Of a DNA stretch of 34,338 nt, positions 8,208 to 34,338 are shown piece by piece; position 1 is the stretch's first letter, and every line of letters starts with the position of its first letter. This stretch comes from an uncultured Cycloclasticus sp. (GTDB taxonomy: Bacteria; Pseudomonadota; Gammaproteobacteria; Methylococcales; Cycloclasticaceae). Below the pieces are notes generated by a model. That model did not search any database, had not been told where the DNA came from, and saw only the letters and a program-made list of their open reading frames with translations. The position numbers were made by a program, and so were the translations under genes. Where the stretch lies: contig CAJXTU010000015.1 in the NCBI GenBank assembly GCA_913060865.1, forward strand, positions 1-34,338. Reading direction: 5' to 3'.

Positions 8208-8299
8208 CTTAAGTAAATACATGCGAATGAAGCCTGTAATAAGGGCCTTTTTATGACTGGCCTATTTTTATTATGTTGAACTTTAATAAGGAATTAATT

Positions 8300-8743: not shown

Positions 8744-8778
8744 CAATTTAACTAACTGTAAAAACTGGAGTATATGAA

Positions 8779-9646: not shown

Positions 9647-9653
9647 ATTGAAT

Positions 9654-11375
9654 ATGACCGATCAATTAAATATATCCAGCGGGCAATATTCCGACAAAGG
9701 TCGAAAGAGCATCAATCAAGATTTTCATGGTCTATATATTCCTGATGATCACCTATTAACGTCTAAGGGTATTGCCATTGTTTTAGCCGATGGCATTAGT
9801 AGCAGTGATGTTAGCCATATTGCTAGTGAATCATCTGTTAGCGGTTTTCTATCGGATTATTTCTGCACCTCAGAAACCTGGTCTGTTAAACAATCGGCGC
9901 AACGGGTTTTAACGGCAACCAACTCTTGGCTATATGCCCAAAGCCAACAAAGCCCACATCGGTTTAATAAAGATCGTGGCTATGTGTGTACGTGTAGCGC
10001 GATGGTCATAAAATCAAGAACTGCCTATATTTTTCATGTGGGCGACAGCCGTATTTATCGCGTCAATGGCAATACACTAGAACAACTCACTAACGATCAT
10101 AGACTATGGGTTTCAGAGGATAAAAGTTACCTTAGCCGCGCAATGGGGATTAAACAGCAACTCGATATTGACTATCAAGATCTAGCGGTAGAAGAGGATG
10201 ATACCTTCTTTTTTGCAACTGATGGCGTCTATGAGTTCGTTAGCGATACGTTCATTATTAATGCCATCAATGATCATACGGGCAGACTGGACGAAGCAGC
10301 CAAGCTGATTGTTAATGAAGCCTTTAAACAAGGTAGCGATGATAACCTGACCGCACAAATTGTTCATATCAATACACTACCTGCCCATGATACAAGTGAG
10401 CTTTATCAACAAATAACTGAGCTCCCATTCGCCCCCTCATTAGACGCGCGAATGACATTTGATGGCTACAAAATTATTCGAGCCATTCATCAAAGTAGTC
10501 GTAGTCACGTTTATTTAGCGGTTGATGTAGATAACGGCGAGCAGGTTGTTCTTAAAACGCCATCGATAGACCTCAGAAACGACACAACATATTTAGAACG
10601 TTTTACGATGGAGGAGTGGATTGCACGACGCATTAATAATGCACATGTGCTGAAACCATGTGCTCAGACTCGCAAACGACACTACCTTTATATCGCCTTG
10701 GAGTTTATTGACGGCCAGACATTAACTCAGTGGATGGTTGATAACCCCAAACCCGATTTAGAAACCGTGCGGGGCATTATCGAGCAAATAGCTAAAGGCT
10801 TACGTGCTTTCCATCGTTTAGAGATGTTGCACCAAGATTTAAGGCCAGAAAACATCATGATCGATTCAACAGGAACGGTGAAAATTATTGATTTCGGCTC
10901 AACCCGAGTGGCTGGGATAATGGAAATAGCCAGCTCGAATCAGCAAAACAATATACTGGGTACCGCGCAATATACCGCCCCAGAATATTTCCTTGGTGAA
11001 AGGGGTACCACCCGTTCTGATCTGTTCTCGTTAGGTGTTATTACCTATCAAATGCTAACCGGGAATTTACCCTATGGCGTAGAAGTCGCAAGATGTAAAA
11101 CCAAGGCGGCGCAAAATAAACTGCATTATAAAACCGTGCTAGACGATGAGCACGAAATCCCCGTTTGGTTTGATGATGTATTGAAAAAAGCAGTGCACCC
11201 TAATCCTTATAAACGTTACGGGGAATTATCGGAGTTTATATTTGACCTGCGCCAACCCAATAAGGTGTTTTTAAATAAAACTCGCCCACCGCTCATGGAA
11301 CGTAACCCCGTGCTTTTCTGGAAAAGCACATCGTTAATTTTAGCCGCTATTGTTTTATATTTACTGAGTCAATAA
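9654..11375 (+). CDS. PP2C phosphatase-Ser/Thr kinase fusion, TM tail (copy 1)
   Basis: A 573-aa bifunctional signalling protein. Residues about 1-240 form a PP2C phosphatase with its metal-binding motifs (SINQD, VLADGISS, HVGDSRIY, FATDGVYEF, GSDDNLTA). Residues about 270-520 form a Hanks-type kinase: VVLKTP (Lys), HQDLRPEN (catalytic Asp, near residue 395), IDFGSTR and TAPEYF. The glycine-rich loop is degenerate, and the usual HRD is HQD, so this is a non-RD kinase. A single C-terminal hydrophobic helix (about 553-571) anchors both domains on the cytoplasmic face. The ATG at 9654 is preferred over a TTG at 9648; neither has a good ribosome-binding site. A paralogue lies at 20821-22524 beside a nitrate transporter. 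Related kinase genes sit near nitrate-assimilation genes in Pseudomonas (from memory). Its target is unknown. Confidence 0.88.
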   Translation: MTDQLNISSGQYSDKGRKSINQDFHGLYIPDDHLLTSKGIAIVLADGISSSDVSHIASESSVSGFLSDYFCTSETWSVKQSAQRVLTATNSWLYAQSQQSPHRFNKDRGYVCTCSAMVIKSRTAYIFHVGDSRIYRVNGNTLEQLTNDHRLWVSEDKSYLSRAMGIKQQLDIDYQDLAVEEDDTFFFATDGVYEFVSDTFIINAINDHTGRLDEAAKLIVNEAFKQGSDDNLTAQIVHINTLPAHDTSELYQQITELPFAPSLDARMTFDGYKIIRAIHQSSRSHVYLAVDVDNGEQVVLKTPSIDLRNDTTYLERFTMEEWIARRINNAHVLKPCAQTRKRHYLYIALEFIDGQTLTQWMVDNPKPDLETVRGIIEQIAKGLRAFHRLEMLHQDLRPENIMIDSTGTVKIIDFGSTRVAGIMEIASSNQQNNILGTAQYTAPEYFLGERGTTRSDLFSLGVITYQMLTGNLPYGVEVARCKTKAAQNKLHYKTVLDDEHEIPVWFDDVLKKAVHPNPYKRYGELSEFIFDLRQPNKVFLNKTRPPLMERNPVLFWKSTSLILAAIVLYLLSQ

Positions 11376-20820: not shown

Positions 20821-22524
20821 TTATTTCAGCCATAAGAGAACGATATTGGCTAATAAACTTAAAATGGCGAGTCCTTTCCAAACTATTAACGGGTTACGTT
20901 CGATGAGTGGTATGTGTGCTACTTCTGTAAACTCTTTGTTAGGGTATGAGAGGTCATGAATGAATTCTGATATTTCTTCATAACGGTTAGAGGGCTTTCT
21001 TTTGACGGTTTTTCGGATGGCACCATCTACCCAAAGAGGGATGTCTAAGTCGATGTTTAATAATGAAAGATACGTTAATTTACTTAATGCTTTTTCGCCG
21101 TATTTCTCGCTAAATGGAAGTTGCCCACTAATCATTTCGTAAGTGATGACGCCTAAAGAAAAGGCATCTGAACGGTAGCTAGCAGCTTGGCCTAATAAAT
21201 ATTCCGGAGCGGTATAGTGCTGCGTTCCAAGTAAGCTTAGTCGATGAATGGGGCTTGCTATTTCCTCCACACCGGCGACTTTTGTTGAACCAAAATCGAT
21301 GATTTTCACGGTACCTTGTGTATCAATGATGATGTTTTCCGGTTTTAAATCTTGGTGAATCATTTCCTTGCGATGAAAGGCTCTTAATCCACGTGCGATT
21401 TGGCGCACAATGCCTCTAACCTCGTGCAAACTAGGTTGAGGGTTGTCGCTCATCCAGTGTCTGAGTGTTTGGCCTTCAATGTATTCGGTTACGTAATAAA
21501 GAAAGCGGCGCGTTCTAGTTTGTTCAATAATTTTTAGAACGTGATTGCTATCAATGCGGCGACCAATCCATTCTTCATGCACAAACATATCTAAAAAGGT
21601 GGGGTCGTCCACATAGTTAACAGAGGGCGTTTTGATCACAACTCGTTGGCCTGTTTTCTCATCGGTGGCGAGATAAACTTGTGTTCGATTACTGGCATGA
21701 AGTTCACGCTCTATGCGGTAACCATCGATAATCATGCCGGCATTTAAATCAGGTGGAAAGGGTAATTCGGTTAGTTTTCGATAAACCTCTTGCTCATTGA
21801 TTTGTGGTAATTGATTGAATCTGACCAGTTGGCAGGTGACGTTATCGTCGCTACCATTTTTCATGGCAAGTGCTGTTATTTCTCGAGCGGCACGGTCTAA
21901 GTTGTTAGTGTTATCAATGATTTTCTCTAGCATGACTGCATCGCTAATAAACTCATGAACGCCGTCGGTGCTAAATAAAAACGTGTCGCCTATTTCCAAT
22001 AAAAAATTGGTGTAATCAATTTCTAAATGTAGGTCGATACCCATTGCACGGGTGAGGTAATTTTTGTCTTTAGATACCCAAAAGCGGTGATCATCGGTGA
22101 GCAACTCAAGTTTATTGTCACGTATTCGGTAAATGCGCGTATCACCAATATGAAATAAGTGAACGGTGGACGATTTAACAATCAACGCACTCATGGTGGT
22201 TGCCAAGCCTTTTTGATTAGCGCCACCTTGTTGCGCCATTCCAAGCATCCAGCGATTAGTGGCGGTTAAAACCTTTTGTACAGAGGTTTTAACTGTCCAA
22301 CTATCAGGCGTGCAGTAATAATCAGCTAATAGGCTTTTTACACACGACTCGCTAGCGAGCTTGCCGGCATCACAACCACTCACGCCATCGGCAATAACAA
22401 CAGCGACTCCTTTCTGTTCTAGCACGGGAGATTCAGGCAGCAAGACGCCATAGCTATCTTGGTTTTCTACCTTAAGGCCTTTATCTGACGATTGGCCAAG
22501 ATCAATAAGTGATTCTGCTTGCAT
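20821..22524 (-). CDS. PP2C phosphatase-Ser/Thr kinase fusion, TM tail (copy 2)
   Basis: A 567-aa paralogue of the fusion at 9654-11375, with the same layout. The PP2C domain (about 1-240) has VENQDSYG, VVIADGVSG, HIGDTRIYRI, FSTDGVHEFI and GSDDNVTCQ. The kinase (about 265-520) has VVIKTP, HQDLKPENIII, IDFGSTK and TAPEYLLG, and the protein ends in a single membrane helix. Here too the glycine loop is degenerate and HRD is HQD. All PP2C metal-binding Asp residues are kept, so both activities look possible. It begins 20 bases after the narK stop, so it belongs to the sigma-54-driven narK operon. The nearest candidate targets are the transporter and the nitrate/nitrite reductases (inference). 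Confidence 0.88.
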   Translation of the reverse strand: MQAESLIDLGQSSDKGLKVENQDSYGVLLPESPVLEQKGVAVVIADGVSGCDAGKLASESCVKSLLADYYCTPDSWTVKTSVQKVLTATNRWMLGMAQQGGANQKGLATTMSALIVKSSTVHLFHIGDTRIYRIRDNKLELLTDDHRFWVSKDKNYLTRAMGIDLHLEIDYTNFLLEIGDTFLFSTDGVHEFISDAVMLEKIIDNTNNLDRAAREITALAMKNGSDDNVTCQLVRFNQLPQINEQEVYRKLTELPFPPDLNAGMIIDGYRIERELHASNRTQVYLATDEKTGQRVVIKTPSVNYVDDPTFLDMFVHEEWIGRRIDSNHVLKIIEQTRTRRFLYYVTEYIEGQTLRHWMSDNPQPSLHEVRGIVRQIARGLRAFHRKEMIHQDLKPENIIIDTQGTVKIIDFGSTKVAGVEEIASPIHRLSLLGTQHYTAPEYLLGQAASYRSDAFSLGVITYEMISGQLPFSEKYGEKALSKLTYLSLLNIDLDIPLWVDGAIRKTVKRKPSNRYEEISEFIHDLSYPNKEFTEVAHIPLIERNPLIVWKGLAILSLLANIVLLWLK

Positions 22525-22544: not shown

Positions 22545-24011
22545 TTAAGTGACGTCGATCAGTTCTACTGTACCATCTTCTAACACTTCAGCTGTTTGTC
22601 CTTTGGGTTCTTCTAAGAATATGAGCATGAACAATAAGACGACGCCGGCTGTTGCACCAATCACCATAAAGAAAATTTGTGGAGAAACGAAAGATAGGAC
22701 AGTTAAAAAGGTTAAGCCACCAACATTGCCGTAAGCACCGACCATCCCAGCTACTTGCCCCGTCATACGGCGCTGAATTAAAGGAACCATCGCATAAACC
22801 GCGCCAGAACCACCCTTTGAAAATAGACCACATATAATGGTGCAGGCGACGACTAGTGGCACGGCCCAAGCTTGTGTTACCTGACCTAATAATATAAAGG
22901 TTAACGTGATGCCTGAAAATAAAATAACGAGAGATTTTTTTCGACCCATTTTGTCACTCATAATGCCACCACCAGGACGAGCTATTAAATTCATAACAGG
23001 GTAAATAGCAGCCAAAAGGCCAGCGGTAACAGGAGATAGCCCAAACATATCAATGTAGAACAGTGGAAGCATCGAAACAAGTGCTAATTCAGAACCAAAC
23101 GTCACCATATAAGCGAGATCTAAAATGGCTACTTGTTTAAATTTATAGCGAAATAAGTCAGGCACTTCTTTGCTGAAAATATCTTTATTCACTTTAATAA
23201 TGTGCATCGCTTGATAGAGATAAACAGCCGCAATACCGATATAAGCAATGAGTACCATTTGATCACTTAACCAACTCATACCACTGGGCGACAGCTTCCA
23301 CGTTAGGAGTGCTAGCGCAGCATAAATAGGTAAGCTCATTATCAAGTAAAGTAGTAAATCAACTTTACTAGTGACTTCCATGCCGCCTACTTTTTTGGGT
23401 TTGAAGTAGGTGGAGCCTTTTGGTGTATCAGTCACACTGAGATAATAAAAGATACCATATACAAAGGCGATGACCGCCGTTGTTGTTAAAGCGTATCGCC
23501 AACCGTCATCGCCACCCATCCATAGAGCTAATGCTGGTAATGCCATCGCTGAGGCTGCTGAACCAAAGTTACCCCAGCCGCCATAAATACCTTGGGCAAT
23601 GCCCGTTTGTCTTGCTGGGAACCATTCGCCGATCATGCGGATACCAACAACGAAACCAGCGCCTACAAAGCCTAATAAAAACCGAGCTAAGGCTAATTGT
23701 TCAAAGGTTTGAGCCCATGCAAAAAACAAACATAAGAAGCTCGATACGATGAGAATGCCAGAAAACATGCGACGTGGGCCAAAACTATCAACCATCATGC
23801 CGACCACGATACGTGCAGGAATCGTTAAGGCGACGTTTAAAATTAATAAGACGGATACTTCTTGGCTTGTTAGATTAAATACATCTCTGATCACGGACAT
23901 TAACGGTGCGTGGTTAAACCAGACCATGAAGCTAATAAAAAAAGCAAACCAGGTCGTATGTAAAATACGAATATTTCCTTTAAACGATAGTAAATTTAGT
24001 TTTTGCGACAT
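22545..24011 (-). CDS. narK: NarK/NasA-type nitrate/nitrite MFS transporter
   Basis: A 488-aa inner-membrane protein of the nitrate/nitrite porter family of the major facilitator superfamily, with 12 predicted membrane segments. Both nitrate-signature glycine-rich regions are present: IYGGWGNFGSAASAMALPAL in the first half and MVGAYGNVGGLTFLTVLSF in the second. The conserved substrate-binding arginines lie in GIRMIGEWFP and PLIQRRMTGQ. It supplies nitrate to NasA. The frame opens 15 codons further upstream (24056), but a sigma-54 promoter occupies 24045-24063 with its start site near 24037, so that start would lie outside the message. AAGGAG before the ATG at 24011 confirms the shorter form. 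Operon with the PP2C-kinase gene. Confidence 0.9.
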   Translation of the reverse strand: MSQKLNLLSFKGNIRILHTTWFAFFISFMVWFNHAPLMSVIRDVFNLTSQEVSVLLILNVALTIPARIVVGMMVDSFGPRRMFSGILIVSSFLCLFFAWAQTFEQLALARFLLGFVGAGFVVGIRMIGEWFPARQTGIAQGIYGGWGNFGSAASAMALPALALWMGGDDGWRYALTTTAVIAFVYGIFYYLSVTDTPKGSTYFKPKKVGGMEVTSKVDLLLYLIMSLPIYAALALLTWKLSPSGMSWLSDQMVLIAYIGIAAVYLYQAMHIIKVNKDIFSKEVPDLFRYKFKQVAILDLAYMVTFGSELALVSMLPLFYIDMFGLSPVTAGLLAAIYPVMNLIARPGGGIMSDKMGRKKSLVILFSGITLTFILLGQVTQAWAVPLVVACTIICGLFSKGGSGAVYAMVPLIQRRMTGQVAGMVGAYGNVGGLTFLTVLSFVSPQIFFMVIGATAGVVLLFMLIFLEEPKGQTAEVLEDGTVELIDVT

Positions 24012-24047
24012 TGCAAGAGTTCTCCTTCGATAGATTAGGTCGTTAAA

Positions 24048-24063
24048 GCAATACATGTGCCAA
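24048..24063 (-). promoter_or_regulatory. Sigma-54 promoter of narK
   Basis: On the minus strand TTGGCAC-ATGTA-TTGC followed by TTT matches the RpoN consensus essentially perfectly, with GG (24061-24060) and GC (24049-24048) ten bases apart. Transcription should start near 24037, 26 bases before the narK ATG. Confidence 0.9.
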
Positions 24064-24316: not shown

Positions 24317-26845
24317 ATGAGTGATAAAAAGCAATTGGTTGTTATTGGCAACGGTATGGTTGGGCATAAGTTCCTACAGTCCATGACTAACAGTGAAGCA
24401 ATGCAAGATTATGAGATTACAACATTTTGTGAGGAAACTCGTCTTGCTTATGATCGTGTTCAGCTGACCTCTTACTTTAATGGTAAAACGGAAGATGATC
24501 TGTCTCTCGTTGAGCCAGGTTTCTTTGAAGAAAATAAGATAACGGTTCATACAGGTGATCGTGCGTCAAAAATTGACCGTGATAAGAAAATTGTCACCTC
24601 TGACAGTGGTCGGAGTATTTCATACGATAAAATTGTGTTAGCAACAGGTTCATTTCCCTTTGTTCCGCCTATTCCAGGGCATGAAAGGGATAATTGTTTC
24701 GTTTATCGTACGATAGATGACCTAATTGATATTACTAACGCCGGTGAGACATCAAAGGTGGGTGTTGTCATTGGTGGCGGTTTGCTGGGTCTTGAAGCGG
24801 CAAAAGCATTAAAAGATCTCGGATTAAAAACTCACGTTGTTGAATTTGCGCCACGTTTAATGGCGGTGCAAATTGATGATGGAGCAGGTGCTGTACTTCG
24901 TAAAAAGATTGAAGAACTAGATGTCAGCGTTCATACGCAAAAGAATACGCAGGGTATTGTTGATGGTGAGGAATGTGTTCATCGTATGAATTTCGCAGAT
25001 GGCACGCACATCGAAACGGATGTTATTTTATTTTCAGCCGGTATTCGTCCACGTGATGATATTGCTCGTGATTGTGGTTTAACACTTGGTGAACGCGGTG
25101 GCATTGTTGTTGATAATAACTGTCAAACATCGGATGAAGATATTTATGCGATTGGTGAATGTGCTTTATGGGATGGCAAAATATTTGGTCTAGTGGCGCC
25201 GGGTTATCAGATGGCTCAAGTGGCTGCGGATCAATTATCTGCAAAAGAAAACAGTTTTACGGGTGCAGATATGAGCACCAAGTTAAAACTGATGGGTGTT
25301 GATGTTGCGAGTATTGGTGATGCGCACGCGACAACAGAAAAAGCAAAAGTGTATACCTATGTGAACGGCGCAGACGACGTGTATAAAAAAATCGTTGTGA
25401 GCGAGGATAATAAACGTTTATTGGGAGCCGTTTTAATTGGAGATACGGTTGATTACGGCAATTTATTGCAACTTAAACTCAATGATATTGCCTTACCAGA
25501 ATACCCCGATTCATTGATTTTACCGCAACGCGATGGTTCTGGAGTAACTGGCTTAGGCGTAGAAGCGTTACCGGACTCTGCTCAAATATGTTCGTGTTTT
25601 GATGTGACTAAAGGTGCGCTTTGCCATGCAGTGTCTGATGGGGCGACAACGATGGCTGCCATTAAAGAGTGCACTAGTGCAACAACAGGTTGTGGTGGTT
25701 GTACAGCGTTGGTCGGGCAAGTACTTAATAAAGAGTTGGAAAAAATGGGCATGGATGTAAACACAGACCTGTGTGAGCATTTTGCTTATACACGTCAGGA
25801 AATGTATCACCTGATTCGTGTTGAGAAAATTAAAACATTTGATGACTTGTTAGCAAAACACGGTACAGGCTATGGTTGTGATATTTGTAAACCAGCGGCA
25901 GCCTCTATTTTTGCTTCATGTTGGAATGATTATGTATTAGAAACGCCTCATGCGGGTCTTCAAGATACGAACGACCGCTACCTTGCCAATATCCAAAAAA
26001 ATGGTACGTATTCCATTGTTCCTCGTATTCCAGGTGGTGAAATTACGCCAGACAAACTGATTGCGTTAGGTGAGGTGGGTAAAAAATATAATTTGTATAC
26101 CAAAATTACCGGTGGTCAACGAGTGGATTTGTTCGGTGCACGCCAGGATAAGCTGCCTGTTATTTGGAAAGAGCTTATCGATGCGGGTTTTGAAACCGGG
26201 CATGCTTACGGTAAATCGCTACGTACAGTGAAGTCATGTGTTGGTAGTACATGGTGTCGTTATGGTGTTGCCGATAGCGTAACAACCGCTATTAATTTAG
26301 AAAATAGATACAAAGGCTTGCGAGCACCACATAAATTTAAATTTGCAGTATCAGGCTGTACGCGTGAATGCGCCGAGGCGCAAAGCAAAGACGTTGGCGT
26401 TATCGCCACTGAAAACGGTTGGAACTTATATTTATGTGGAAATGGTGGTATGAAACCACGTCATGCAGATTTATTTGCGACGGGTTTAGATGATGAAACG
26501 CTGGTTAAATACATTGATCGTTTCTTGATGTTCTACATCAAAACAGCAGACCGTTTGCAACGTACCTCGACATGGATGATGAATTTAGAAGGTGGTCTAG
26601 ATTACTTGCGTGAAGTGGTGATCGACGATTCACTTGGACTCGCCTCAACCTTTGAAGAAGAAATGCAATTGGTGATTGACACTTACCAGTGCGAGTGGAA
26701 AAAAACGGTTGAAAATGAAGAAAAATCTAAAAAGTTTAATACCTTTGTCAACTCAGATAAGACGGATAGTCAAATCGTATTTGTACCAGAACGTGACCAA
26801 ATACGACCTGCGCACAAAGAAGAAATTGCAGCGAAACTTAATTAA
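24317..26845 (+). CDS. nirB: Assimilatory nitrite reductase [NAD(P)H], large subunit
   Basis: An 842-aa cytoplasmic flavoprotein that reduces nitrite to ammonium with six electrons from NAD(P)H. Order: an FAD-binding domain (VVIGNGMVGHKFL at the N-terminus), an NAD(P)-binding domain (GVVIGGGLLGLEAAKAL near 150), and BFD-type [2Fe-2S] motifs (CSCFDV near 424, CTSATTGCGGC). Then come the nitrite/sulfite reductase ferredoxin-like half-domain and the sirohaem/[4Fe-4S] domain with CVGSTWC (near 641) and CTREC (near 680). All cluster cysteines are present. Length agrees with E. coli NirB (847). First gene of the plus-strand operon and 14 bases before nirD. Confidence 0.96.
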   Translation: MSDKKQLVVIGNGMVGHKFLQSMTNSEAMQDYEITTFCEETRLAYDRVQLTSYFNGKTEDDLSLVEPGFFEENKITVHTGDRASKIDRDKKIVTSDSGRSISYDKIVLATGSFPFVPPIPGHERDNCFVYRTIDDLIDITNAGETSKVGVVIGGGLLGLEAAKALKDLGLKTHVVEFAPRLMAVQIDDGAGAVLRKKIEELDVSVHTQKNTQGIVDGEECVHRMNFADGTHIETDVILFSAGIRPRDDIARDCGLTLGERGGIVVDNNCQTSDEDIYAIGECALWDGKIFGLVAPGYQMAQVAADQLSAKENSFTGADMSTKLKLMGVDVASIGDAHATTEKAKVYTYVNGADDVYKKIVVSEDNKRLLGAVLIGDTVDYGNLLQLKLNDIALPEYPDSLILPQRDGSGVTGLGVEALPDSAQICSCFDVTKGALCHAVSDGATTMAAIKECTSATTGCGGCTALVGQVLNKELEKMGMDVNTDLCEHFAYTRQEMYHLIRVEKIKTFDDLLAKHGTGYGCDICKPAAASIFASCWNDYVLETPHAGLQDTNDRYLANIQKNGTYSIVPRIPGGEITPDKLIALGEVGKKYNLYTKITGGQRVDLFGARQDKLPVIWKELIDAGFETGHAYGKSLRTVKSCVGSTWCRYGVADSVTTAINLENRYKGLRAPHKFKFAVSGCTRECAEAQSKDVGVIATENGWNLYLCGNGGMKPRHADLFATGLDDETLVKYIDRFLMFYIKTADRLQRTSTWMMNLEGGLDYLREVVIDDSLGLASTFEEEMQLVIDTYQCEWKKTVENEEKSKKFNTFVNSDKTDSQIVFVPERDQIRPAHKEEIAAKLN

Positions 26846-26859
26846 GCGATAACAAACGG

Positions 26860-27219
26860 ATGAAGACAGAAATGGCTAATGAATTGAATGGTAATGAAAT
26901 TGATATCTGTGCCTTAACAGACCTTACCGACAATGCGGGAACGGCAGCACTAGTTAATGATGTGCAGGTTGCCCTATTTTACATAAAAAGAACTGAACAG
27001 GTATTTGCGCTAAGTAATTACGATCCTTTTAGTGAAGCAAATGTTTTATCTCGCGGTATCATCGGCAGCATAGGCGATGAGCTCGTGGTGGCGTCACCGA
27101 TCTACAAACAACACTTCAACCTTGAAACAGGGCAATGTTTGGAAGATGAAAAGGTATCTATTCCTGCTTACCCAACACAAATAATAAATGGCCGTGTTTT
27201 AATCGGTTTAGCAAGTTAA
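26860..27219 (+). CDS. nirD: Nitrite reductase small subunit
   Basis: A 119-aa Rieske-fold protein of the NirD family, partner of NirB. As in other NirD proteins, the Cys/His cluster ligands of true Rieske proteins are missing, so it carries no iron-sulfur cluster. Matching segments include FALSNYDPFSEANVLSRGII, VASPIYKQHFNLETGQCLED and VSIPAYPTQI. A second in-frame ATG at 26872 would give a 115-aa protein closer to the usual length (about 108); ribosome-binding sites are weak for both, so the start is uncertain by four codons. Confidence 0.92.
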   Translation: MKTEMANELNGNEIDICALTDLTDNAGTAALVNDVQVALFYIKRTEQVFALSNYDPFSEANVLSRGIIGSIGDELVVASPIYKQHFNLETGQCLEDEKVSIPAYPTQIINGRVLIGLAS

Positions 27220-27233
27220 TTGGGCTTATAACA

Positions 27234-28148
27234 ATGAAAGCAACTTATTACACGTTCGACGTATTTACCGATGAGCTATTCCAAGGAGCTCAAATTGCGG
27301 TTTTCCCAAAAGCAGACGGATTGCCAGAGGATAAGCTTGACCTAATTGCTCGTGAAATAAACTTATCTGAAACTGCGTTTATCTATGAAACGGATGAAGG
27401 CGACAGCACATTTAATGTTCGTATTTTCTCACCAACAGGCGAGCAAAATTTTGCGGGGCATCCTGTTTTAGCGATTGCCAATGTATTGGCTGAAACAGGG
27501 CGAATTAGCGTGGATGGTGACTATACAAGTATCAACTTGAAGCAAAAAAGCCAAGATGTGATAGCTAATATTTCTGTGAGTGACAGTGATAAGCGGTTTG
27601 TACAATTTACCTTGAATAGCTCACCTGTGGTGGATCGTTTTACTCCCCCTGGTAACGAACTAGCAAAACTATTGTCAATTAATGAAAACGATATTGACCA
27701 TGCAAACTACCATACGCGCCTTGTGTCTAGTGGGCTACCTTATCTGATTGTGCCATTGAAATCACAAACGGCTGTTCGTAAAGCGCGTTTTGATGTTAAA
27801 GCCTGGAGTGAGTCATCAGCACCTGCAATGGCGGCACAAGAAATTTTTATCTTCAGCGCAAAAACAGATTCTGATGATAGTAACTTCCATGCCCGTTTAT
27901 TGGGCCCAAGTGTTGGTGATCATGAAGATCCACCGATTGGTTCAGCCTTGCCTGCTTTTACAGGCTACTTAGCGTCACACGACCATATCAGGGAAGGAAC
28001 GTACAGCTTTGCAATTGATCGTGGTACTTTAGAGACACGTAGAAGTTTATTGCATGTAGAAATGGATAAACGTTCGGGGCGCCCAATAACGTTGCGAGTA
28101 GGGGGTAACTCCGTGTTAGTTAGCAAAACCGAATTAATGATTAATTAA
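27234..28148 (+). CDS. PhzF-family epimerase/isomerase-like protein
   Basis: A 304-aa protein of the PhzF/YddE family, two-lobed diaminopimelate-epimerase fold. MKATYYTFDVFTDELFQGAQ at the N-terminus and INLSETAFIYE, whose Glu corresponds to the catalytic residue of PhzF, are typical, as are FSPTGEQNFAGHPVLA and GPSVGDHEDPPIGSALPAF. Members isomerise dienes or related small substrates, but most bacterial ones have no known role. It sits tightly between nirD and nasA (14 and 11 bases), so it is co-transcribed with nitrate assimilation; no phenazine genes are nearby. The link with nitrate reduction is unexplained. Confidence 0.85.
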   Translation: MKATYYTFDVFTDELFQGAQIAVFPKADGLPEDKLDLIAREINLSETAFIYETDEGDSTFNVRIFSPTGEQNFAGHPVLAIANVLAETGRISVDGDYTSINLKQKSQDVIANISVSDSDKRFVQFTLNSSPVVDRFTPPGNELAKLLSINENDIDHANYHTRLVSSGLPYLIVPLKSQTAVRKARFDVKAWSESSAPAMAAQEIFIFSAKTDSDDSNFHARLLGPSVGDHEDPPIGSALPAFTGYLASHDHIREGTYSFAIDRGTLETRRSLLHVEMDKRSGRPITLRVGGNSVLVSKTELMIN

Positions 28149-28159
28149 ACGAGTTTAAT

Positions 28160-30364
28160 ATGCTATTTGGAAGAGATAAAAAGAACCCTATCAAAATAGC
28201 CGATAAAAAGGCTGAAAAATGGACCTATGCGACTTGTGGTTATTGCTCAGTCGGTTGTTCTATCGAAATTGGTACCAATGCGGAAGGTAAAGTAGTTGGC
28301 TCTAGAGGTGTTGGCGGTGCCGATGTTAACCGTGGCAAACTGTGTGTAAAAGGTATTTTTGAACATGAATTGTTTGAATCGTCTGGACGTGGAGATAAGC
28401 CGCTTATTCGTGAGAGTATTCACCAAGGGTATCGAGAAACGAACTGGGATGATGCCGCCAAAACAATGGTTAGTGAGATCAACCGTATCCAAGAAACTTA
28501 CGGTAGGGACTCTTTTGCCGTTGTGTCGACAGGGCAATTACTAACAGAAGAATTTTATACGTTAGGAAAATTAACTCGCGGTGTTATTGGTACGAATAAT
28601 TATGATGGCAACACAACCTTGTGTATGGCGTCGGCCGTGTCGGGTTACAAACGCTCATTTGGATCTGACGGTCCACCGGGTTGTTACGAGGATTTCGAAC
28701 ATACCGAGTGCCTAATGGCATGGGGGTCCAACTTACCCGAGCAGCACCCTATTATTTATTGGCGTTTACAAGAGTCTCGCGAAAAACGTGATTTTCCTCT
28801 TATTGTAGTAGATCCACGTGTCACCATGTTGGCTCAAAAAGCCGATATTCATTTGGCAATAACACCCGGTACAGATGTTGTTCTGCAAAATGCCTTGATG
28901 TATGTCATCTTGGATGAAGGGCTGGAAGATCGTGAGTATATTGAAGCTAATACGGTCGGTTTAGAACAGCTTGAAGCAGAAGTTCAAAAGTATGACCCAA
29001 CATCAGCCGCAGCTATCTGTGGGATTGATGAAGATACGATTCGGAATGTAGCGCGCATTTACGCGAAAGCAGGATCAGCGATGAGTATTTGGACGATGGG
29101 TATAAACCAAAGTACGCATGGCTCGGATGGTGTTGTTGGTATCAATAATCTCAATTTAATTACCGGTAATGTTGGTAAAGAAGGGGGCACGAGTTTGTCC
29201 ATTACCGGGCAATGTAATGCAATGGGTACACGTGAGTGGTCATCTTGTTCTGGTTTACCGGGCTACCGTTATCTAGAAAATGAACAAGATAGAAAAGATA
29301 TTGGAGAATTTTGGAATGTTGACCCAGAGTTTTTTCCAAAAAAACGAGGGCTTGCTCAAACGGATATTTTTCCAGCCATAGAGACTGGTCAAATAAAGGG
29401 CTTATGGCTTATTGCGACGAACCCGATGACGTCAATGCCTAATACTGAACGTACCCGTAAGATTCTAGAAAAATTGGATTTCTTAGTGGTTCAGGACAGT
29501 TATGCCGATGTAGAAACGACTCAATATGCGAATTTATATTTACCTGCAGCAACATGGGCTGAGAAAGAAGGTGTATTTACCAATACGGAGCGACGGGTCA
29601 ATATCGTTCGAAAGGTGACGGATGCACCGGGTGATTCAAAATCGGATTTTGATATTTTCAACTTATTGGCAAAATACTTTTCAGGTAGCGAAAAAATGAC
29701 CTTTCCTGATAAACCTGAAGGTGCTTTTGAGGAGATGAAAGCATTATCGAAAGGACGGTTAGCCGATATTTCAGGAATGAATCATGATCTGATTGAAAAA
29801 CAACGCGGTATTCAATGGCCCTATACAGAAGAGCAATCTAATAAAGGTGAATTGCCACCCAGTGGTGGTAAGCGGTTGTACACAGAACCTGGAACGTTCA
29901 GCCATGCAGATGGTATGGCTAAATTAATACCCCTGCCGTTTATTGATAATAACGAAGTGCCTGATGATAAGTTTCCATTTTGGCTTAATACAGGACGCTT
30001 GGTTGAGCATTTTCATACGCGTACGAAAACAGGAAAATTGGGTAATACCAACAAGTATAGCCCGATTCCATTTATGGAAATAAACCCTGATGCAGCGAAA
30101 GACCTTGGTGTTGATCAAGGTGAATACGTGCGTTGCGTGTCTAGGCGAGGGGATGCGATTGTGATGGCGATGTTAACGCAACGTGTGCCTAAAAATATGG
30201 TGTTTATTCCTTTCCACTATTTTGATTGTGTTAACCGCTTAACACTCGGATTATTAGACCCCCATTCACGACAGCCCGCTTATAAGCAATCGGCCGTTAC
30301 GATAGAAATACTTGAAGACCAACAGGCTGCCGCACAACTCAGCATGGAAATGCGTCGTTTTTAA
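28160..30364 (+). CDS. nasA: Molybdopterin assimilatory nitrate reductase catalytic subunit
   Basis: A 734-aa molybdo-bis-PGD enzyme reducing nitrate to nitrite. The N-terminal [4Fe-4S] site is C26-x2-C29-x3-C33-x28-C62, followed by KG of the CVKG motif. Further family segments include NNYDGNTTLCMASAVSGYKR, WGSNLPEQHPI, ATWAEKEGVFTNTERRVNIV, and a C-terminal MoCo-binding domain ending near MVFIPFHYFD. No twin-arginine signal is present, so it acts in the cytoplasm. It lacks the C-terminal [2Fe-2S] domain of Klebsiella-type NasA (about 866 aa) and is closer in size to NarB. Electrons probably come from the following ferredoxin-DmsC fusion. Formate dehydrogenase is the main alternative but is made unlikely by the NarK/NirBD context. 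Confidence 0.9.
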   Translation: MLFGRDKKNPIKIADKKAEKWTYATCGYCSVGCSIEIGTNAEGKVVGSRGVGGADVNRGKLCVKGIFEHELFESSGRGDKPLIRESIHQGYRETNWDDAAKTMVSEINRIQETYGRDSFAVVSTGQLLTEEFYTLGKLTRGVIGTNNYDGNTTLCMASAVSGYKRSFGSDGPPGCYEDFEHTECLMAWGSNLPEQHPIIYWRLQESREKRDFPLIVVDPRVTMLAQKADIHLAITPGTDVVLQNALMYVILDEGLEDREYIEANTVGLEQLEAEVQKYDPTSAAAICGIDEDTIRNVARIYAKAGSAMSIWTMGINQSTHGSDGVVGINNLNLITGNVGKEGGTSLSITGQCNAMGTREWSSCSGLPGYRYLENEQDRKDIGEFWNVDPEFFPKKRGLAQTDIFPAIETGQIKGLWLIATNPMTSMPNTERTRKILEKLDFLVVQDSYADVETTQYANLYLPAATWAEKEGVFTNTERRVNIVRKVTDAPGDSKSDFDIFNLLAKYFSGSEKMTFPDKPEGAFEEMKALSKGRLADISGMNHDLIEKQRGIQWPYTEEQSNKGELPPSGGKRLYTEPGTFSHADGMAKLIPLPFIDNNEVPDDKFPFWLNTGRLVEHFHTRTKTGKLGNTNKYSPIPFMEINPDAAKDLGVDQGEYVRCVSRRGDAIVMAMLTQRVPKNMVFIPFHYFDCVNRLTLGLLDPHSRQPAYKQSAVTIEILEDQQAAAQLSMEMRRF

Positions 30365-30388
30365 TAGGTTAGGTTAAAAAATACTCTT

Positions 30389-32278
30389 ATGTTTGAAGTT
30401 AGAAGTGATGAACCAAAATATGCGTTTCTTTGGGATAAAGAAACAAAAGCCAAAAATCAATATGGCGACTCTATTGAGTTAGCTCCTGATACGAGTGATT
30501 TACATGGCGTTAGTTTAAATATTAATAATGATGCTGCGGTGGGTGACAATCCTAACCGTTATAAACAACATGGTTTTTATCTCAATGCAGATAACTGTAT
30601 TGGTTGTCATGCTTGTGAAGCAGCCTGTAGCGAGAAAAACGATAATCCTGCACATATATCCTTTCGTTCAGTTGGTTTTGTAGAAGGTGGCACCTACCCA
30701 GAATACCAACGTTTAAATATATCTATGGCGTGCAATCATTGCGATGATCCGGTTTGTCTTAAGGGCTGCCCAACACGCGCTTACACAAAATATGCAGAAT
30801 ACGGTGCGGTTCTTCAAGACCCCGATATTTGTTTTGGTTGTGGTTACTGCACATGGGTTTGCCCTTATAACGCACCTCAGTTAGATCCTGTAAAGGGTGA
30901 AGTTAGTAAATGTAATATGTGTGTTGATCGCCTTGAAGTGGGTTTGAAACCAGCCTGTGTATCCGCTTGTTTAGGGAATGCGCTGGACTTTGGTGTGATT
31001 GAAAATGTGCCCGACAACCGCGAACAAAGTAAAACAGAGATTCCAGGGTTTCCAACGACAGAGATTACCCACCCAAATATTCGCTTCCAGCAAACACGTC
31101 AAACAAATCGTGAAATGACGCGTACGGACTCGATGCCGCTTAAATATCATAAGGATGAAGATAAAGGACAATACAAATCAGTTGTCGATGAAAAACATGG
31201 TGTTGAAAGGCAATGGAACTGGGCATCATTATTGATAACACATGAAAGTTCGCACGTTATTTTTACCCTTACAACGCAGGCCATTTTAGGCGCATTTTTA
31301 ATGTTGGTTATAGGGCATGTTATTGAGAATGAGCTGATCCTCGCTATTCAGTCCTCTAGTGCATATTTACCATTATTAGGCGTTATGAATGGTTTGCTAA
31401 TGATTGGACTATATAAACTTAATATGCACTTAGGTAAGCCGCATCGTTTTTATCGTGGTTTTTATAATCTTCGTCATTCACCTGTCAGCCGAGAAATTGC
31501 AGGTGTTAGCTTGTTCTTTACCAGTTTATTAGGGTTTACCTTTTTTAGTTTCTTAGAAATGAACCTTTTGGTTGGCATGTTTGCGATCCTCGGGGTCATC
31601 AGTGGTCCCCTTGGTTTGTTTTATATGTATAAGTTGTATCGTATTAAGGCGAGACCATTTTGGGATCATTGGCAAACAGCGTCCTCATTTGTTGGTACCT
31701 GTTTGAGTTTGGGGGCTTTAGTTATTGGCTTAGGTGTTTTGATAAGTAGTGATATGTCGAGCGCTTTAGTTAATGATTTGCTAGTCCTGTTGTTAGTAGG
31801 GCTATTGCTTGAAACAGCCGGTCATATCGCTCATGCACGAGACTTGAAAAAAGGTGTAGGGGAAGGTGCTGCGTCTTGGCATCAGCAAGTAACGCTCTTC
31901 GGATGGCCTTACATGATCAGTAATGGTTTGCTTGCAGTGTCTATTTTAACAACGATATGGTTATTGGCACTTCCTACGTCAATTATACTTTGGTGCACCC
32001 TTGTGATGGCTTTATTGTCCACGGCAGTTATTAGGCGTTCTTTGTTCTTCGCATTGGTTATTCCAACTACTATGCCGGGTGCATTCTTTTGGAAAAATAA
32101 AGGGTTTGAACAACATGCAAAAGACACCGGCTTAGCTAAAATGCAACAAGTTGGCGTGGCGTATGAAGCGCATAGAACCTTTAATATCAAAGAGTTATTG
32201 TTAACTATTAAAGAAACTTCTATGAAGGAAGCAGTGGATCAAGTCAAAAGTATCTTTATATGGAAAGAGGTTAAATGA
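30389..32278 (+). CDS. DmsB-like four-cluster ferredoxin fused to DmsC-like membrane anchor
   Basis: A 629-aa fusion. After a 65-residue extension come four cysteine groups for four [4Fe-4S] clusters: C70/C73/C76/C80, C115/C118/C123/C127, C148/C151/C154/C158 and C175/C178/C190/C194. A linker (about 205-275) leads to about eight membrane helices (about 280-590) of the DmsC family, with the hallmark LNMHLGKPHRFYRGFYNLRHS and SREI. In DMSO reductase, DmsC oxidises menaquinol and DmsB relays electrons to DmsA. Here the two jobs are on one chain directly behind nasA, so it most likely delivers quinol electrons to NasA in the cytoplasm (inference). The stop overlaps the ravA start (ATGA). No frameshift: the fusion is one open frame. 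Confidence 0.88.
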   Translation: MFEVRSDEPKYAFLWDKETKAKNQYGDSIELAPDTSDLHGVSLNINNDAAVGDNPNRYKQHGFYLNADNCIGCHACEAACSEKNDNPAHISFRSVGFVEGGTYPEYQRLNISMACNHCDDPVCLKGCPTRAYTKYAEYGAVLQDPDICFGCGYCTWVCPYNAPQLDPVKGEVSKCNMCVDRLEVGLKPACVSACLGNALDFGVIENVPDNREQSKTEIPGFPTTEITHPNIRFQQTRQTNREMTRTDSMPLKYHKDEDKGQYKSVVDEKHGVERQWNWASLLITHESSHVIFTLTTQAILGAFLMLVIGHVIENELILAIQSSSAYLPLLGVMNGLLMIGLYKLNMHLGKPHRFYRGFYNLRHSPVSREIAGVSLFFTSLLGFTFFSFLEMNLLVGMFAILGVISGPLGLFYMYKLYRIKARPFWDHWQTASSFVGTCLSLGALVIGLGVLISSDMSSALVNDLLVLLLVGLLLETAGHIAHARDLKKGVGEGAASWHQQVTLFGWPYMISNGLLAVSILTTIWLLALPTSIILWCTLVMALLSTAVIRRSLFFALVIPTTMPGAFFWKNKGFEQHAKDTGLAKMQQVGVAYEAHRTFNIKELLLTIKETSMKEAVDQVKSIFIWKEVK

Positions 32279-33801
32279 GGGATCGGCTTCAACGAATTTT
32301 TGAAGCGTTAAATGTTGGACTCATTGAACGGGAAACACCGTTAAAGCTTGCACTATTGTCGGCACTTGCTGGCGAACATATTTTGTTATTAGGCGCTCAT
32401 GGAACAGCTAAAAGTGTATTAGCACAACGGTTACATTTAGCCTTCAAAGATGGGGAATACTTTGAACGTTTACTGACGCGTTTTTCAGTCCCTGAAGAAT
32501 TATTTGGCCCGCTGTCAATTAAGTCATTAGAGAATGATCGCTATCAACGTTTAACGAAACATTATTTACCATCGGCCACAGTTGCTTTTATAGATGAAAT
32601 ATTTAAAGCAAACAGTGCTATTTTGAATTCCTTGCTAACTATTTTGAATGAGCGCGAATTTGACAATGGTGATGTTCGAGAAAAAATTCCCCTTATATCT
32701 GTTATTGGCGCCAGTAATGAATTGCCAGAAGATGATAGTTTGTTGGCATTATATGACCGTTTCCTATGTAGATATCAAGTTCAGGCCATTTCTAATGAAC
32801 GGTTTGATGAATTATTGCACTTAAACGATCAGTCCATTACACCGCCGAATGAAGCAGACCAATTAACGGCTCAGTTAGTGCTGGATATTCAACGACATGC
32901 AGATGAAATAACATTATCGGAAGAGGTCGTTGAATTGCTAAAGGCTCTTCGTGAATACCTCCAGACCTCATTATTATATATTTCAGATAGGCGATGGAGG
33001 AAAGTGGTTAAGCTTTTAAAAGTAGCCGCTTGGAGCAACGGACAAAAAAAAGTCACAATATGGGATTGTTGGTTGTTGCAACATTGCCTGTGGGACGCGC
33101 CTGAAAAAAAAGAACAGATAGCCGCTTGGTTTCATTCTCATGTGGGCGTTGGTAGTGGGTTTAATTCTGAACGCTTGAACAAGTTAGTGTCAACATGGGA
33201 ACGTGTTTTACACAATGATACGGATAGTAAAGTTCAGCTAACGAATGCAGATCATCAGCTGTTGTACATGTCTGCAGATGGGGAGCAAACGACCGAAAAA
33301 TCATATTCTCAATGGCATAAGCGTGGTGAAGAATTACTTTATTTATCTCCCCCTGATCAGCCAGATAGAACACATGCTGGGCAAGGCTTCACCGCTGATG
33401 AACTGTTAAATGAATTCTTTGATGATAGAAAACAGCAGTCTCACATTCGAGGAAAATGGCAACATATTGATCGATATCTGGCAGATTCCAGTAATCGTTT
33501 TGTTACGGATATTGAAAACTCACCTATTATGGTTGCCAAACATCATAAAGAAGCTTTTATACAAGGCCGGGTGGATGAGGTTGAGCGTTTACGAGACGAT
33601 ATTCAGCAATTTAAGAAAAACTTACAAGCCCAATATGACTCTTTAGATCGATCAAATAGCGAACACCTTTGGTTAGACCCAGACTTTATTAAAATGGCCG
33701 ACGACAGTTTAATTTATTCGATTGAACAAGCAGATGCGTTCATTGAAAGGCTAGGTATCGTATTAGATGGGTATTTTACCTTGCCAACATTAGCGGCTTA
33801 A
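32275..33801 (+). CDS. ravA: RavA-like MoxR-family AAA+ ATPase
   Basis: A 508-aa ATPase. The Walker A motif GAHGTAKS (near 39-46), FSVPEELFGPLSIKSLE, the Walker B FIDEIFKANSAILNSLLTIL, and a sensor region ASNELPEDDSLLALYDRFL make the AAA+ core. SDRRWRKVVKLLKVAAWSNG is the RavA-type helical lid. The C-terminal third (about 300-508) corresponds to the RavA-specific LARA/triple-helical part and is diverged. Length is close to E. coli RavA (498). RavA works with the VWA protein ViaA as a chaperone-like pair affecting respiratory Fe-S complexes (E. coli work on fumarate reductase and Nuo). Here it overlaps the DmsBC-like gene by four bases, pointing to maturation or control of this reductase (inference). 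Confidence 0.88.
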   Translation: MRDRLQRIFEALNVGLIERETPLKLALLSALAGEHILLLGAHGTAKSVLAQRLHLAFKDGEYFERLLTRFSVPEELFGPLSIKSLENDRYQRLTKHYLPSATVAFIDEIFKANSAILNSLLTILNEREFDNGDVREKIPLISVIGASNELPEDDSLLALYDRFLCRYQVQAISNERFDELLHLNDQSITPPNEADQLTAQLVLDIQRHADEITLSEEVVELLKALREYLQTSLLYISDRRWRKVVKLLKVAAWSNGQKKVTIWDCWLLQHCLWDAPEKKEQIAAWFHSHVGVGSGFNSERLNKLVSTWERVLHNDTDSKVQLTNADHQLLYMSADGEQTTEKSYSQWHKRGEELLYLSPPDQPDRTHAGQGFTADELLNEFFDDRKQQSHIRGKWQHIDRYLADSSNRFVTDIENSPIMVAKHHKEAFIQGRVDEVERLRDDIQQFKKNLQAQYDSLDRSNSEHLWLDPDFIKMADDSLIYSIEQADAFIERLGIVLDGYFTLPTLAA

Positions 33802-33823
33802 TACCCGCTTTAATGCCTGCCAC

Positions 33824-34338
33824 ATGAGTTCGGCTTTATTAAACAATCGGTATGAAGTTTTAGATTTACTGTCTGAATCACTGTATAGCACGGTTATATC
33901 TCTTCCTCATGGGGGGCTGATAGAACGCGTCAGCGGCATTTTACAATGGCGAAATGCGTTACTTGACGGTGAACTACCTGATCATGAACAACTTAATTGG
34001 CCCGATCAGCAGATAAAAATCACTTTATTAAAGCGTCTTGAATCACTCAATATTGCCCGATATTGCAGGCAACAAGAAGAGTTAACAGACTTAATTCTTA
34101 TTGATATATGTGAGGGAATTTCAACGGCTGAGGAATATTTTAAAATTAAGCCGGATGGTTTTGTAGACAAGCTAGCTCAACAACAAAATAAACGTGAACG
34201 AGAGTCTGAGTTTAAAGACGAAGCAGGTATTAGTAACGACGGTGGACAACAGCAACGACAGGAACAGGAACAGTCCGAAACAACCGAAACATCCGAAACA
34301 TCCGAAACATCCGAAACATCCGAAACATCCGAAACATC
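33824..34338 (+). CDS. Partial ViaA-like partner of RavA, Ser-Glu-Thr repeats
   Basis: At least 171 codons, open to the window end. It begins MSSALLNNRYEVLDLLSES 22 bases after ravA. The visible part is a helical N-terminal region (about 1-120), then a charged Gln/Glu-rich stretch, then repeated Ser-Glu-Thr from a 9-base tandem repeat. No VWA motif (DxSxS) is visible because the frame is cut, so the ViaA assignment rests on position behind ravA and the helical start. I do not recognise close similarity to E. coli ViaA in this part. Confidence 0.6.
   Translation, partial: MSSALLNNRYEVLDLLSESLYSTVISLPHGGLIERVSGILQWRNALLDGELPDHEQLNWPDQQIKITLLKRLESLNIARYCRQQEELTDLILIDICEGISTAEEYFKIKPDGFVDKLAQQQNKRERESEFKDEAGISNDGGQQQRQEQEQSETTETSETSETSETSETSET
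34274..34338 (+). repeat. 9-base tandem repeat encoding (Ser-Glu-Thr)n
   Basis: The unit TCCGAAACA is repeated at least seven times from 34274 (second unit starts with A instead of T, giving Thr-Glu-Thr) and continues to the window end. Units are nearly identical at DNA level, suggesting recent expansion. As the unit is a multiple of three, copy-number change would lengthen or shorten the linker without breaking the frame. Confidence 0.95.

What the first reader, a model, noticed from the sequence alone, without database searches (positions are those of the whole stretch)
28160..32278. Candidate quinol-linked assimilatory nitrate reductase (NasA plus DmsB-DmsC fusion)
Known assimilatory NasA enzymes take electrons from ferredoxin, flavodoxin or an NADH reductase. 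Here NasA lacks its own [2Fe-2S] domain and is followed by one protein combining four [4Fe-4S] clusters with a quinol-oxidising membrane anchor. Without a Tat signal the enzyme faces the cytoplasm. That gives a membrane-bound, DMSO-reductase-like layout used for assimilation.
Basis: partly seen in the sequence, partly recalled or inferred. Interest (0 to 1): 0.75.

Follow-up and report, generated by a model that had tools for sequence, protein, structure and literature searches.

The report
Quinol-fed nitrate reductase for nitrogen assimilation
A marine oil-degrading bacterium, and many sulfur- and methane-oxidising relatives, carry a cytoplasmic nitrate reductase next to a membrane protein that looks built to feed it electrons straight from the respiratory quinone pool, a power source not usually ascribed to nitrate assimilation.

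Summary
NasA (28160-30364, 734 aa) lacks the C-terminal [2Fe-2S] domain and a Tat signal. A 629-aa protein (30389-32278) follows, joining a 16-cysteine DmsB-type domain to an 8-helix DmsC-type anchor, beside narK, nirB and nirD. The pair is conserved: of 369 class genomes 59 hold both, 3 only NasA, 1 only the fusion; 58 of 61 fusion copies lie directly behind NasA. The active-site pair is Cys-Met, as in nitrate reductases, not Cys-His as in formate dehydrogenases. Charge distribution puts the Fe-S side in the cytoplasm in 88 of 88 rows; E. coli DmsC shows the reverse. The host genome shows one other molybdopterin enzyme (formate-dehydrogenase type) and no other DmsC domain, so NasA is the likely partner. 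NasA forms its own clade. Best reading: a membrane-bound, probably non-electrogenic quinol:nitrate reductase facing the cytoplasm, serving assimilation. Complex, quinol oxidation and nitrate activity are inferred. A paper passage I read names only NADH and ferredoxin/flavodoxin donors for Nas enzymes; quinol-linked NarGHI has been proposed for assimilation, so this is a new variant, not a new kind.

The parts
28160..30364 (+). NasA-type molybdopterin oxidoreductase, 734 aa, one N-terminal [4Fe-4S] site, no C-terminal BFD domain, no Tat signal
28622..28627 (+). Cys155-Met156 (proposed Mo ligand and neighbour), nitrate-reductase type
   Evidence: 67 of 67 clade rows, one of them the window's own copy; canonical NasA beside such loci 6 of 6 Cys-Met, formate dehydrogenases 4 of 4 Cys/Sec-His
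30389..32278 (+). DmsB-DmsC fusion, 629 aa
30596..30970 (+). 16-cysteine, four-[4Fe-4S] DmsB-type domain (residues 70-194)
31256..32017 (+). eight-helix DmsC-type membrane anchor (helices at residues 290-543)
31427..31495 (+). loop 2-3 with His347 and Glu369, aligned with His65 and Glu87 of E. coli DmsC (their role in quinol binding is recalled)
24317..26845 (+). NirB, nitrite reductase large subunit
   Evidence: TIGR02374 1124.6 bits, cut-off 578.35
26860..27219 (+). NirD, nitrite reductase small subunit
   Evidence: TIGR02378 112.3 bits, cut-off 74.65
27234..28148 (+). PhzF-family isomerase, role in the cluster unknown
   Evidence: present in 27 of 51 loci with over 5.5 kb upstream
22545..24056 (-). 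NarK-family nitrate/nitrite transporter
   Evidence: TIGR00886 318.5 bits, cut-off 311.7
20821..22524 (-). PP2C phosphatase / Ser-Thr kinase protein; a like-named gene stands beside a canonical nas cluster
   Evidence: control cluster
32275..33801 (+). RavA-like MoxR AAA+ ATPase whose start codon overlaps the fusion's stop (ATGA)
   Evidence: next to the fusion in 18 of 68 loci
33824..34336 (+). start of a protein, cut by the window end; two full-length relatives carry a VWA domain
   Evidence: the cut piece itself hits no Pfam family

Best explanation
NasA and the DmsBC fusion form one membrane-bound quinol:nitrate oxidoreductase whose catalytic side faces the cytoplasm. Quinol (probably ubiquinol) is oxidised in the DmsC half, near the His347/Glu369 loop; electrons pass through four [4Fe-4S] clusters of the DmsB half, then the single [4Fe-4S] cluster of NasA, to Mo-bisMGD, where nitrate is reduced to nitrite. 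NirBD makes ammonium from it. Because the quinol site appears to lie on the same side as nitrate, the enzyme should be electroneutral, i.e. conserve no energy, which fits assimilation rather than respiration. Using quinol would spare NADH that chemolithotrophs and methanotrophs make at a cost. Shown here: genes, motifs, conserved linkage, charge bias, lack of an obvious other partner. Inferred: the complex, quinol oxidation, the electron route, nitrate as substrate, the energetic reason.
For: Linkage: 59 of 369 class genomes hold both genes, 58 of 61 fusion copies directly behind NasA, gaps 3-797 bp; 72 of 73 contig loci with room upstream; co-presence (15) or co-absence (3) in 18 of 18 genomes of the genus, with NirB present in 14 of the 15 and in none of the 3. 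The NasA-fusion pair stays while NirB type, PhzF and MoxR vary. Active site: Cys-Met in 67 of 67. Orientation: K+R mean 18.4 on the Fe-S side against 0.7 on the far side, 88 of 88 rows; E. coli DmsC control 4 against 8. The Fe-S-side loops are longer (mean 142 against 29 residues), but density too is higher there in 88 of 88. Fold: anchor half aligns with alternative complex III chain 8k9e_C (Z 23.0, rmsd 3.1, 276 aligned) and menaquinone-bound polysulfide reductase chain 2vpw_C (Z 18.0, rmsd 3.8, 245 aligned). No other candidate partner seen. Only nitrate-reductase-type protein found in the genome. Setting: NarK-type transporter, NirBD; cyanate lyase and a formate/nitrite transporter about 15 kb upstream of nirB. 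Thermodynamics: nitrate/nitrite about +420 mV against ubiquinone about +110 mV (recalled).
Against: No biochemical data. Best NCBIfam score of NasA is formate dehydrogenase alpha (555 bits, cut-off 666), ahead of NasC (498, cut-off 1100). Exceptions to linkage: G015 has both genes on different contigs, away from contig ends; G290 has NasA with no fusion in the 4.2 kb behind it and none found in the genome; L062 has a fusion without NasA in the 2 kb upstream. In G273 and G067 NasA runs to a contig end and no fusion was found elsewhere. Some genomes also hold a canonical NasA, sometimes in the same cluster, so the pair could have a distinct job there. The predicted fusion model is poor in the DmsB half (mean pLDDT 58.1 overall) and the NasA model is unusable (52.9), so docking was not tested. 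The fold match does not show what the anchor oxidises: cytochrome bd chains score Z 16.8-18.9.
Confidence: 0.7

Rival explanations
1. Same complex, but its main job is disposing of excess electrons or nitrate (redox balance, detoxification, slow nitrate-to-ammonium respiration through NirBD) rather than nitrogen assimilation.
For: NirBD can serve either purpose (recalled; also said in PMC4914600, passage); a quinol donor ties the enzyme to the respiratory chain; in some genomes a canonical NasA sits in the same cluster and could do the assimilation.
Against: The cluster resembles a canonical nas cluster (kinase/phosphatase, nirB, nirD, nasA); no NarG- or NapA-type protein turned up in the genome; the predicted quinol site is on the nitrate side, so no energy would be conserved (plus inference); in 2 genomes of the genus given as 99% complete it is the only NasA-like candidate of the first look (G749, G751).
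Confidence: 0.15
2. NasA is a soluble ferredoxin- or flavodoxin-dependent enzyme like cyanobacterial NarB; the fusion is a neighbour that serves another oxidoreductase.
For: NasA has one [4Fe-4S] site, like NarB (PMC7816997, passage, calls NarB a monomer with a single [4Fe-4S] cluster); exceptions G290, G015, L062.
Against: No other plausible partner seen in the genome; 58 of 61 fusions directly behind NasA; co-absence in the genus.
Confidence: 0.07
3. The molybdoenzyme is not a nitrate reductase but a quinone-linked formate dehydrogenase or another dehydrogenase feeding electrons to quinone.
For: Highest NCBIfam score is Fdh-alpha; PDB best hit is a formate dehydrogenase.
Against: Cys-Met instead of Cys/Sec-His, and TGQ.NAMG.RE instead of the formate dehydrogenases' RGQNNVQG; the tree gives it its own branch (100/100) apart from five formate-dehydrogenase-type rows; gene context is nitrate transport and nitrite reduction.
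Confidence: 0.05

Closest known systems
Canonical assimilatory nitrate reductase NasA/NasC (here mostly about 870-970 aa, BFD [2Fe-2S] domain where checked; donor NADH, or ferredoxin/flavodoxin)
   Same: Cys-Met active site; sits with nirBD and, in the control, a kinase/phosphatase gene; cytoplasmic (recalled)
   Different: At most 39% identical to the window's protein, which is 734 aa without BFD domain; no flavoprotein partner gene next to it in the window but an Fe-S/membrane fusion; separate clade
DMSO reductase DmsABC (E. coli)
   Same: Four-cluster B module plus eight-helix C anchor; His65 and Glu87 of DmsC have counterparts
   Different: B and C fused; no Tat signal; charge pattern flipped; catalytic subunit has Cys where DmsA has Ser
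Sulfite-oxidising SoeABC
   Same: Molybdoprotein, Fe-S protein and membrane anchor acting in the cytoplasm (PMC6335251, passages)
   Different: Oxidises sulfite, three separate subunits; no sequence comparison made here
Respiratory nitrate reductase NarGHI, proposed to serve assimilation in symbionts and studied for it in Mycobacterium tuberculosis
   Same: Quinol-linked nitrate reduction (recalled); assimilatory use proposed (PMC6474228, passage; Malm 2009 seen only as a reference title)
   Different: NarG is a different branch (63.3 bits, best stretch 436-509); NarI is a haem-b protein and the complex electrogenic (recalled)
NrfD/PsrC-type membrane subunits (polysulfide reductase, alternative complex III)
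   Same: Fold of the anchor half
   Different: Different partners; sequence identity 11-13% in the aligned chains

Membership tests
Assimilatory nitrate reductase NasA/NasC | Mo-bisMGD enzyme with N-terminal [4Fe-4S] motif | tested here: met
   Pfam PF04879, PF00384, PF01568
Assimilatory nitrate reductase NasA/NasC | Cys-Met active-site pair of nitrate reductases | tested here: met
   67 of 67 clade rows. Of 6 plasmid proteins annotated or taken as Nas, 5 have Cys-Met; the Rhodococcus one has Cys-Thr and lacks the Fe-S cysteines
Assimilatory nitrate reductase NasA/NasC | Score above the curated NasC cut-off (NF047855) | tested here: not met
   497.9 against 1100 bits
Assimilatory nitrate reductase NasA/NasC | C-terminal BFD [2Fe-2S] domain of the gammaproteobacterial type | tested here: not met
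   absent; present in the paralogue of L015. One-cluster types also lack it (recalled)
Assimilatory nitrate reductase NasA/NasC | Cytoplasmic, no Tat signal | tested here: met
   0 of 64 scored; 4 of 68 rows not scored
Assimilatory nitrate reductase NasA/NasC | Reduces nitrate for nitrogen assimilation | not testable with these tools
   context only
DMSO reductase DmsABC | Four-[4Fe-4S] B subunit | tested here: met
   16 Cys; TIGR02951 162.9 bits is below its 214.1 cut-off
DMSO reductase DmsABC | DmsC anchor domain | tested here: met
   PF04976 56.6 bits, cut-off 22.3
DMSO reductase DmsABC | Tat-exported DmsA-type catalytic subunit with Ser ligand | tested here: not met
   Cys155 where E. coli DmsA has Ser, no Tat
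Formate dehydrogenase (Fdh-alpha) | Cys/Sec-His pair and score above TIGR01591 cut-off | tested here: not met
   Cys-Met; 555.2 against 666.25 bits
Respiratory nitrate reductase NarGHI | NarG-type catalytic subunit | tested here: not met
   narG model 63.3 bits, cut-off 1084.15
Periplasmic nitrate reductase NapA | Score above NapA cut-off, Tat signal | tested here: not met
   403.3 against 904 bits; no Tat
SoeABC | SoeA-type catalytic subunit, sulfite oxidation | not tested
   no SoeA sequence was fetched

The most novel reading that the evidence does not exclude
A third donor class of assimilatory nitrate reductase: an electroneutral, cytoplasm-facing quinol:nitrate oxidoreductase (NasA plus a flipped DmsBC fusion), spread through methane-, sulfur- and hydrocarbon-oxidising Gammaproteobacteria, which spares NADH by drawing electrons at the quinone level, in some lineages with its own RavA/ViaA-like AAA+ helper pair for metal-centre assembly.
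Probability: 0.6. Interest if true: 0.72.

Novelty: new variant of a known kind. Interest (0 to 1): 0.6.

Why it matters
Nitrate assimilation is normally charged to the NADH or ferredoxin budget. If this enzyme is real, many marine and sediment chemolithotrophs and methanotrophs pay the first two electrons from the quinone pool, where their energy substrates deliver them, which changes growth-yield and nitrogen-budget estimates. It would also be a DmsBC-type module used facing inward for biosynthesis, with B and C in one chain and a single gene pair to delete, so it is directly testable. Annotation may well be inconsistent: for the window's NasA none of the 25 NCBIfam models shown (of 28 that matched) reaches its cut-off.

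Tried and rejected
Formate dehydrogenase reading: suggested by the top NCBIfam and PDB hits, rejected on active-site residues and tree. Pairing of the fusion with another molybdoenzyme: rejected for this genome; the second Fer4_11 protein is a 155-aa ORF with no membrane anchor, next to a 338-aa ORF that I take by eye for MoaA, not searched. One search also listed a third, short match (C18:7-369, a Molydop_binding piece); as it and the formate-dehydrogenase-type gene both lie at contig ends I take it for that gene's C-terminus (inference). Chance neighbourhood: rejected by the surveys.

Structure of NasA: model too poor to use (mean pLDDT 52.9); not searched. The DmsB half of the fusion was also modelled poorly, so no docking argument is made. 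Foldseek alone gave no match at E <= 0.001; the fold statement rests on VIA-align Z, a second look at Foldseek's own list.

Plasmids: no record encodes a relative of the fusion at E <= 1e-40; all 585 plasmid records with a NasA match are below 60% identity. Phylum-wide sample: 6 of 398 genomes, the own one included, two of them outside the class.

Literature: searches (nitrate reductase or assimilation terms with DmsC, quinol, membrane anchor, Cycloclasticus, quinone and methanotroph, ubiquinol and DMSO reductase) listed no paper whose title or abstract start names this pair. Of their hits I read passages of PMC4013037, PMC4914600, PMC5322542, PMC12510462 (and its section 19), PMC4899447, PMC12388587, PMC4315400, PMC10609526 and PMC6474228; from searches 14, 64 and 65 passages of PMC3893208, PMC7816997 and PMC6335251; everything else only as listings. 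The library holds open-licence papers only and no supplements were read, so 'not in print' is not shown. PMC12510462 reports unplaced DMSO-superfamily hits in a Cycloclasticus genome, possibly this gene. One search (nitrate, sole nitrogen source, Cycloclasticus) found nothing.

Limits of the surveys: the genome search scored at most 3 and 2 candidates per genome, and one search did not list its weakest rows; the 80 contig loci are the best 80 of 535. The 88 fusion rows and 67 NasA rows (one the window's own copy) are related sequences, not independent trials; the tree used 13 of 68 clade rows (two of them the same sequence) and 20 others, some on long branches.


Full report
What is there. The finding's coordinates are exact. 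The gene row on the plus strand is nirB 24317-26845, nirD 26860-27219, a PhzF-family isomerase 27234-28148, nasA 28160-30364, the fusion 30389-32278, a RavA-like MoxR ATPase 32275-33801 (its ATG overlaps the fusion's TGA in ATGA) and the start of a further gene, of which two full-length relatives carry a VWA domain. Divergently upstream lie a NarK-family transporter and a PP2C-phosphatase/kinase protein. The window belongs to a 2.43 Mb genome, 99.94% complete; the nearest named contigs are Cycloclasticus (87% identical fusion).

NasA. Pfam finds the three usual molybdopterin-oxidoreductase domains and nothing else. None of the 25 NCBIfam models shown, of 28 that matched, reaches its cut-off: formate dehydrogenase alpha 555 of 666 bits, NasC 498 of 1100, NapA 403 of 904. 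In 15 members of the clade the same top families match 15 of 15 (which gives no bit scores for the other members). The residues around the expected Mo ligand decide between these: Cys155-Met156 in 67 of 67 clade rows, as in the canonical NasA paralogues (6 of 6), both NapA rows and 5 of 6 plasmid proteins taken as Nas (the Rhodococcus one has Cys-Thr and lacks the Fe-S cysteines). The four reference formate dehydrogenases and the only other large molybdoenzyme of this genome have Cys-His or Sec-His. A tree of 33 rows puts the 13 clade rows on one branch (100/100) apart from canonical NasA, NapA and the formate dehydrogenases; some rows have long branches, so its sister group is not settled.

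The fusion. Sixteen cysteines in four groups at residues 70-194 are kept in 88 of 88 rows (one of the 16 in 87), and eight hydrophobic helices follow. His347 and Glu369 in loop 2-3 align with His65 and Glu87 of E. coli DmsC and are invariant in 41 aligned members; that these matter for quinol binding in DmsC is recalled, not looked up. The anchor half of a predicted model (10-residue means mostly 72-95 with dips to 42; 58.1 overall) aligns with 8k9e_C (alternative complex III, Z 23.0, rmsd 3.1, 276 aligned) and 2vpw_C (polysulfide reductase with menaquinone, Z 18.0, rmsd 3.8, 245 aligned). Cytochrome bd chains reach Z 16.8-18.9, so the fold alone does not name the substrate.

Which way it faces. 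Neither protein has a Tat signal: 0 of 64 scored NasA (4 of 68 rows could not be scored) and 0 of 88 fusions; the pattern found 2 of 3 periplasmic controls. Lys plus Arg on the loops of the Fe-S side average 18.4 per protein against 0.7 on the other side, in the same direction in 88 of 88; E. coli DmsC, whose Fe-S side is periplasmic (recalled), gives 4 against 8. The Fe-S-side loops are longer (mean 142 against 29 residues) and some positive residues there are conserved functional ones, but density too is higher on that side in 88 of 88.

Does the pair belong together. In 369 genomes of the class the fusion occurs in 60 and the NasA ortholog (68% identity or more, then a gap down to 39%) in 62; both in 59. 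Of 61 fusion copies 58 have NasA directly upstream on the same strand. The three others: G187 and G186 lie at contig ends, G015 has the genes on different contigs. NasA without fusion: in G273 and G067 it runs to a contig end and no fusion was found elsewhere; in G290 4.2 kb behind it hold none. Among 80 contig loci, 73 had over 500 bases upstream and 72 of these hold NasA; the exception, L062, has no NasA in its 2 kb upstream. In 18 genomes of the genus, 15 have both and 3 neither; NirB follows the same pattern except in one 58%-complete genome. The pair is the constant part: of 51 loci with over 5.5 kb upstream, 27 show this NirB, 10 a different NirB type and 14 none, and 27 show PhzF; of 68 with over 1.2 kb downstream, 18 have the MoxR gene.

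No other partner. In the own genome PF00384 finds NasA and one formate-dehydrogenase-type protein with NuoG-like Fe-S modules; PF04976 (DmsC) finds only the fusion; PF13247 finds the fusion and a 155-aa ORF without anchor. So the fusion has no other evident reductase to serve, and NasA is the only nitrate-reductase-type protein found.

Mechanism. I read this as a quinol:nitrate reductase facing the cytoplasm, as in the best explanation. The route quinol, four clusters, NasA cluster, Mo is inferred from DmsABC-type architecture. Since the conserved loop lies on the Fe-S side, quinol protons would be released where nitrate consumes them, so no energy would be stored; this is an inference and would distinguish it from NarGHI. 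The many methane, sulfur and hydrocarbon oxidisers among the loci (titles) suggest a reason: their electrons enter at or near quinone level and NADH is costly. This is a hypothesis; I did not test enrichment.

Relation to what is known. PMC7816997 (passages) divides assimilatory nitrate reductases by NADH or ferredoxin/flavodoxin donors. A cytoplasmic membrane-bound molybdoprotein complex of like layout has a precedent in SoeABC (PMC6335251, passages). NarGHI has been proposed to serve assimilation in symbionts (PMC6474228, passage). The new element is the combination: a separate NasA clade with a single-chain DmsBC partner. Searches showed no paper on it, in an open-licence library and mostly at the level of listings.

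Complications. Some genomes hold a canonical NasA as well, in places within the same cluster (for example L092, L015, L047), which may point to condition-dependent use of two donors. The MoxR/VWA pair resembles RavA-ViaA, which in E. coli is linked to Fe-S respiratory enzymes (PMC3893208, passages); a helper role here is a guess.

Verdict. Observation confirmed, interpretation supported, activity untested. New variant of a known kind; interest 0.6.

Noticed in passing
window 32275-34336: A RavA-like MoxR ATPase (PRK13531 271.7 bits, below its 681 cut-off) overlaps the fusion's stop codon and is followed by a VWA-type gene; next to the fusion in 18 of 68 loci. RavA-ViaA in E. coli is tied to Fe-S respiratory complexes (PMC3893208, passages).
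   Followed up: partly
window 27234-28148: A PhzF-family isomerase sits between nirD and nasA and occurs in 27 of 51 loci with over 5.5 kb upstream; no role in nitrate assimilation is known to me.
   Followed up: partly
window 9648-11375 and 20821-22524: Two PP2C-phosphatase/kinase fusion proteins, 52% identical, one beside a formate/nitrite transporter and one beside the NarK-type transporter, hinting at a shared way of regulating nitrogen-oxide transport.
   Followed up: partly
window 8273-9588: Cyanate lyase followed by a formate/nitrite transporter, perhaps a second inorganic-nitrogen cluster in the same window.
   Followed up: no
L015, L047, L092 (also G071 = L092, G080, G090, G304, G184, G237, G205): Clusters in which the NasA-fusion pair is followed by a canonical-type NasA (BFD domain checked in L015 only), with a NasB-like flavoprotein ORF between them in L015 and L047.
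   Followed up: partly
NasA residues 1-25 (window 28160-28234): A conserved N-terminal stretch MLFGRxKKNPIK... before the first cluster motif, not seen in the canonical NasA rows; possibly a docking element for the fusion.
   Followed up: no
L062: An orphan fusion gene without NasA in the 2 kb upstream; a 433-aa ORF upstream on the other strand looks to me like a transposase (not searched).
   Followed up: partly
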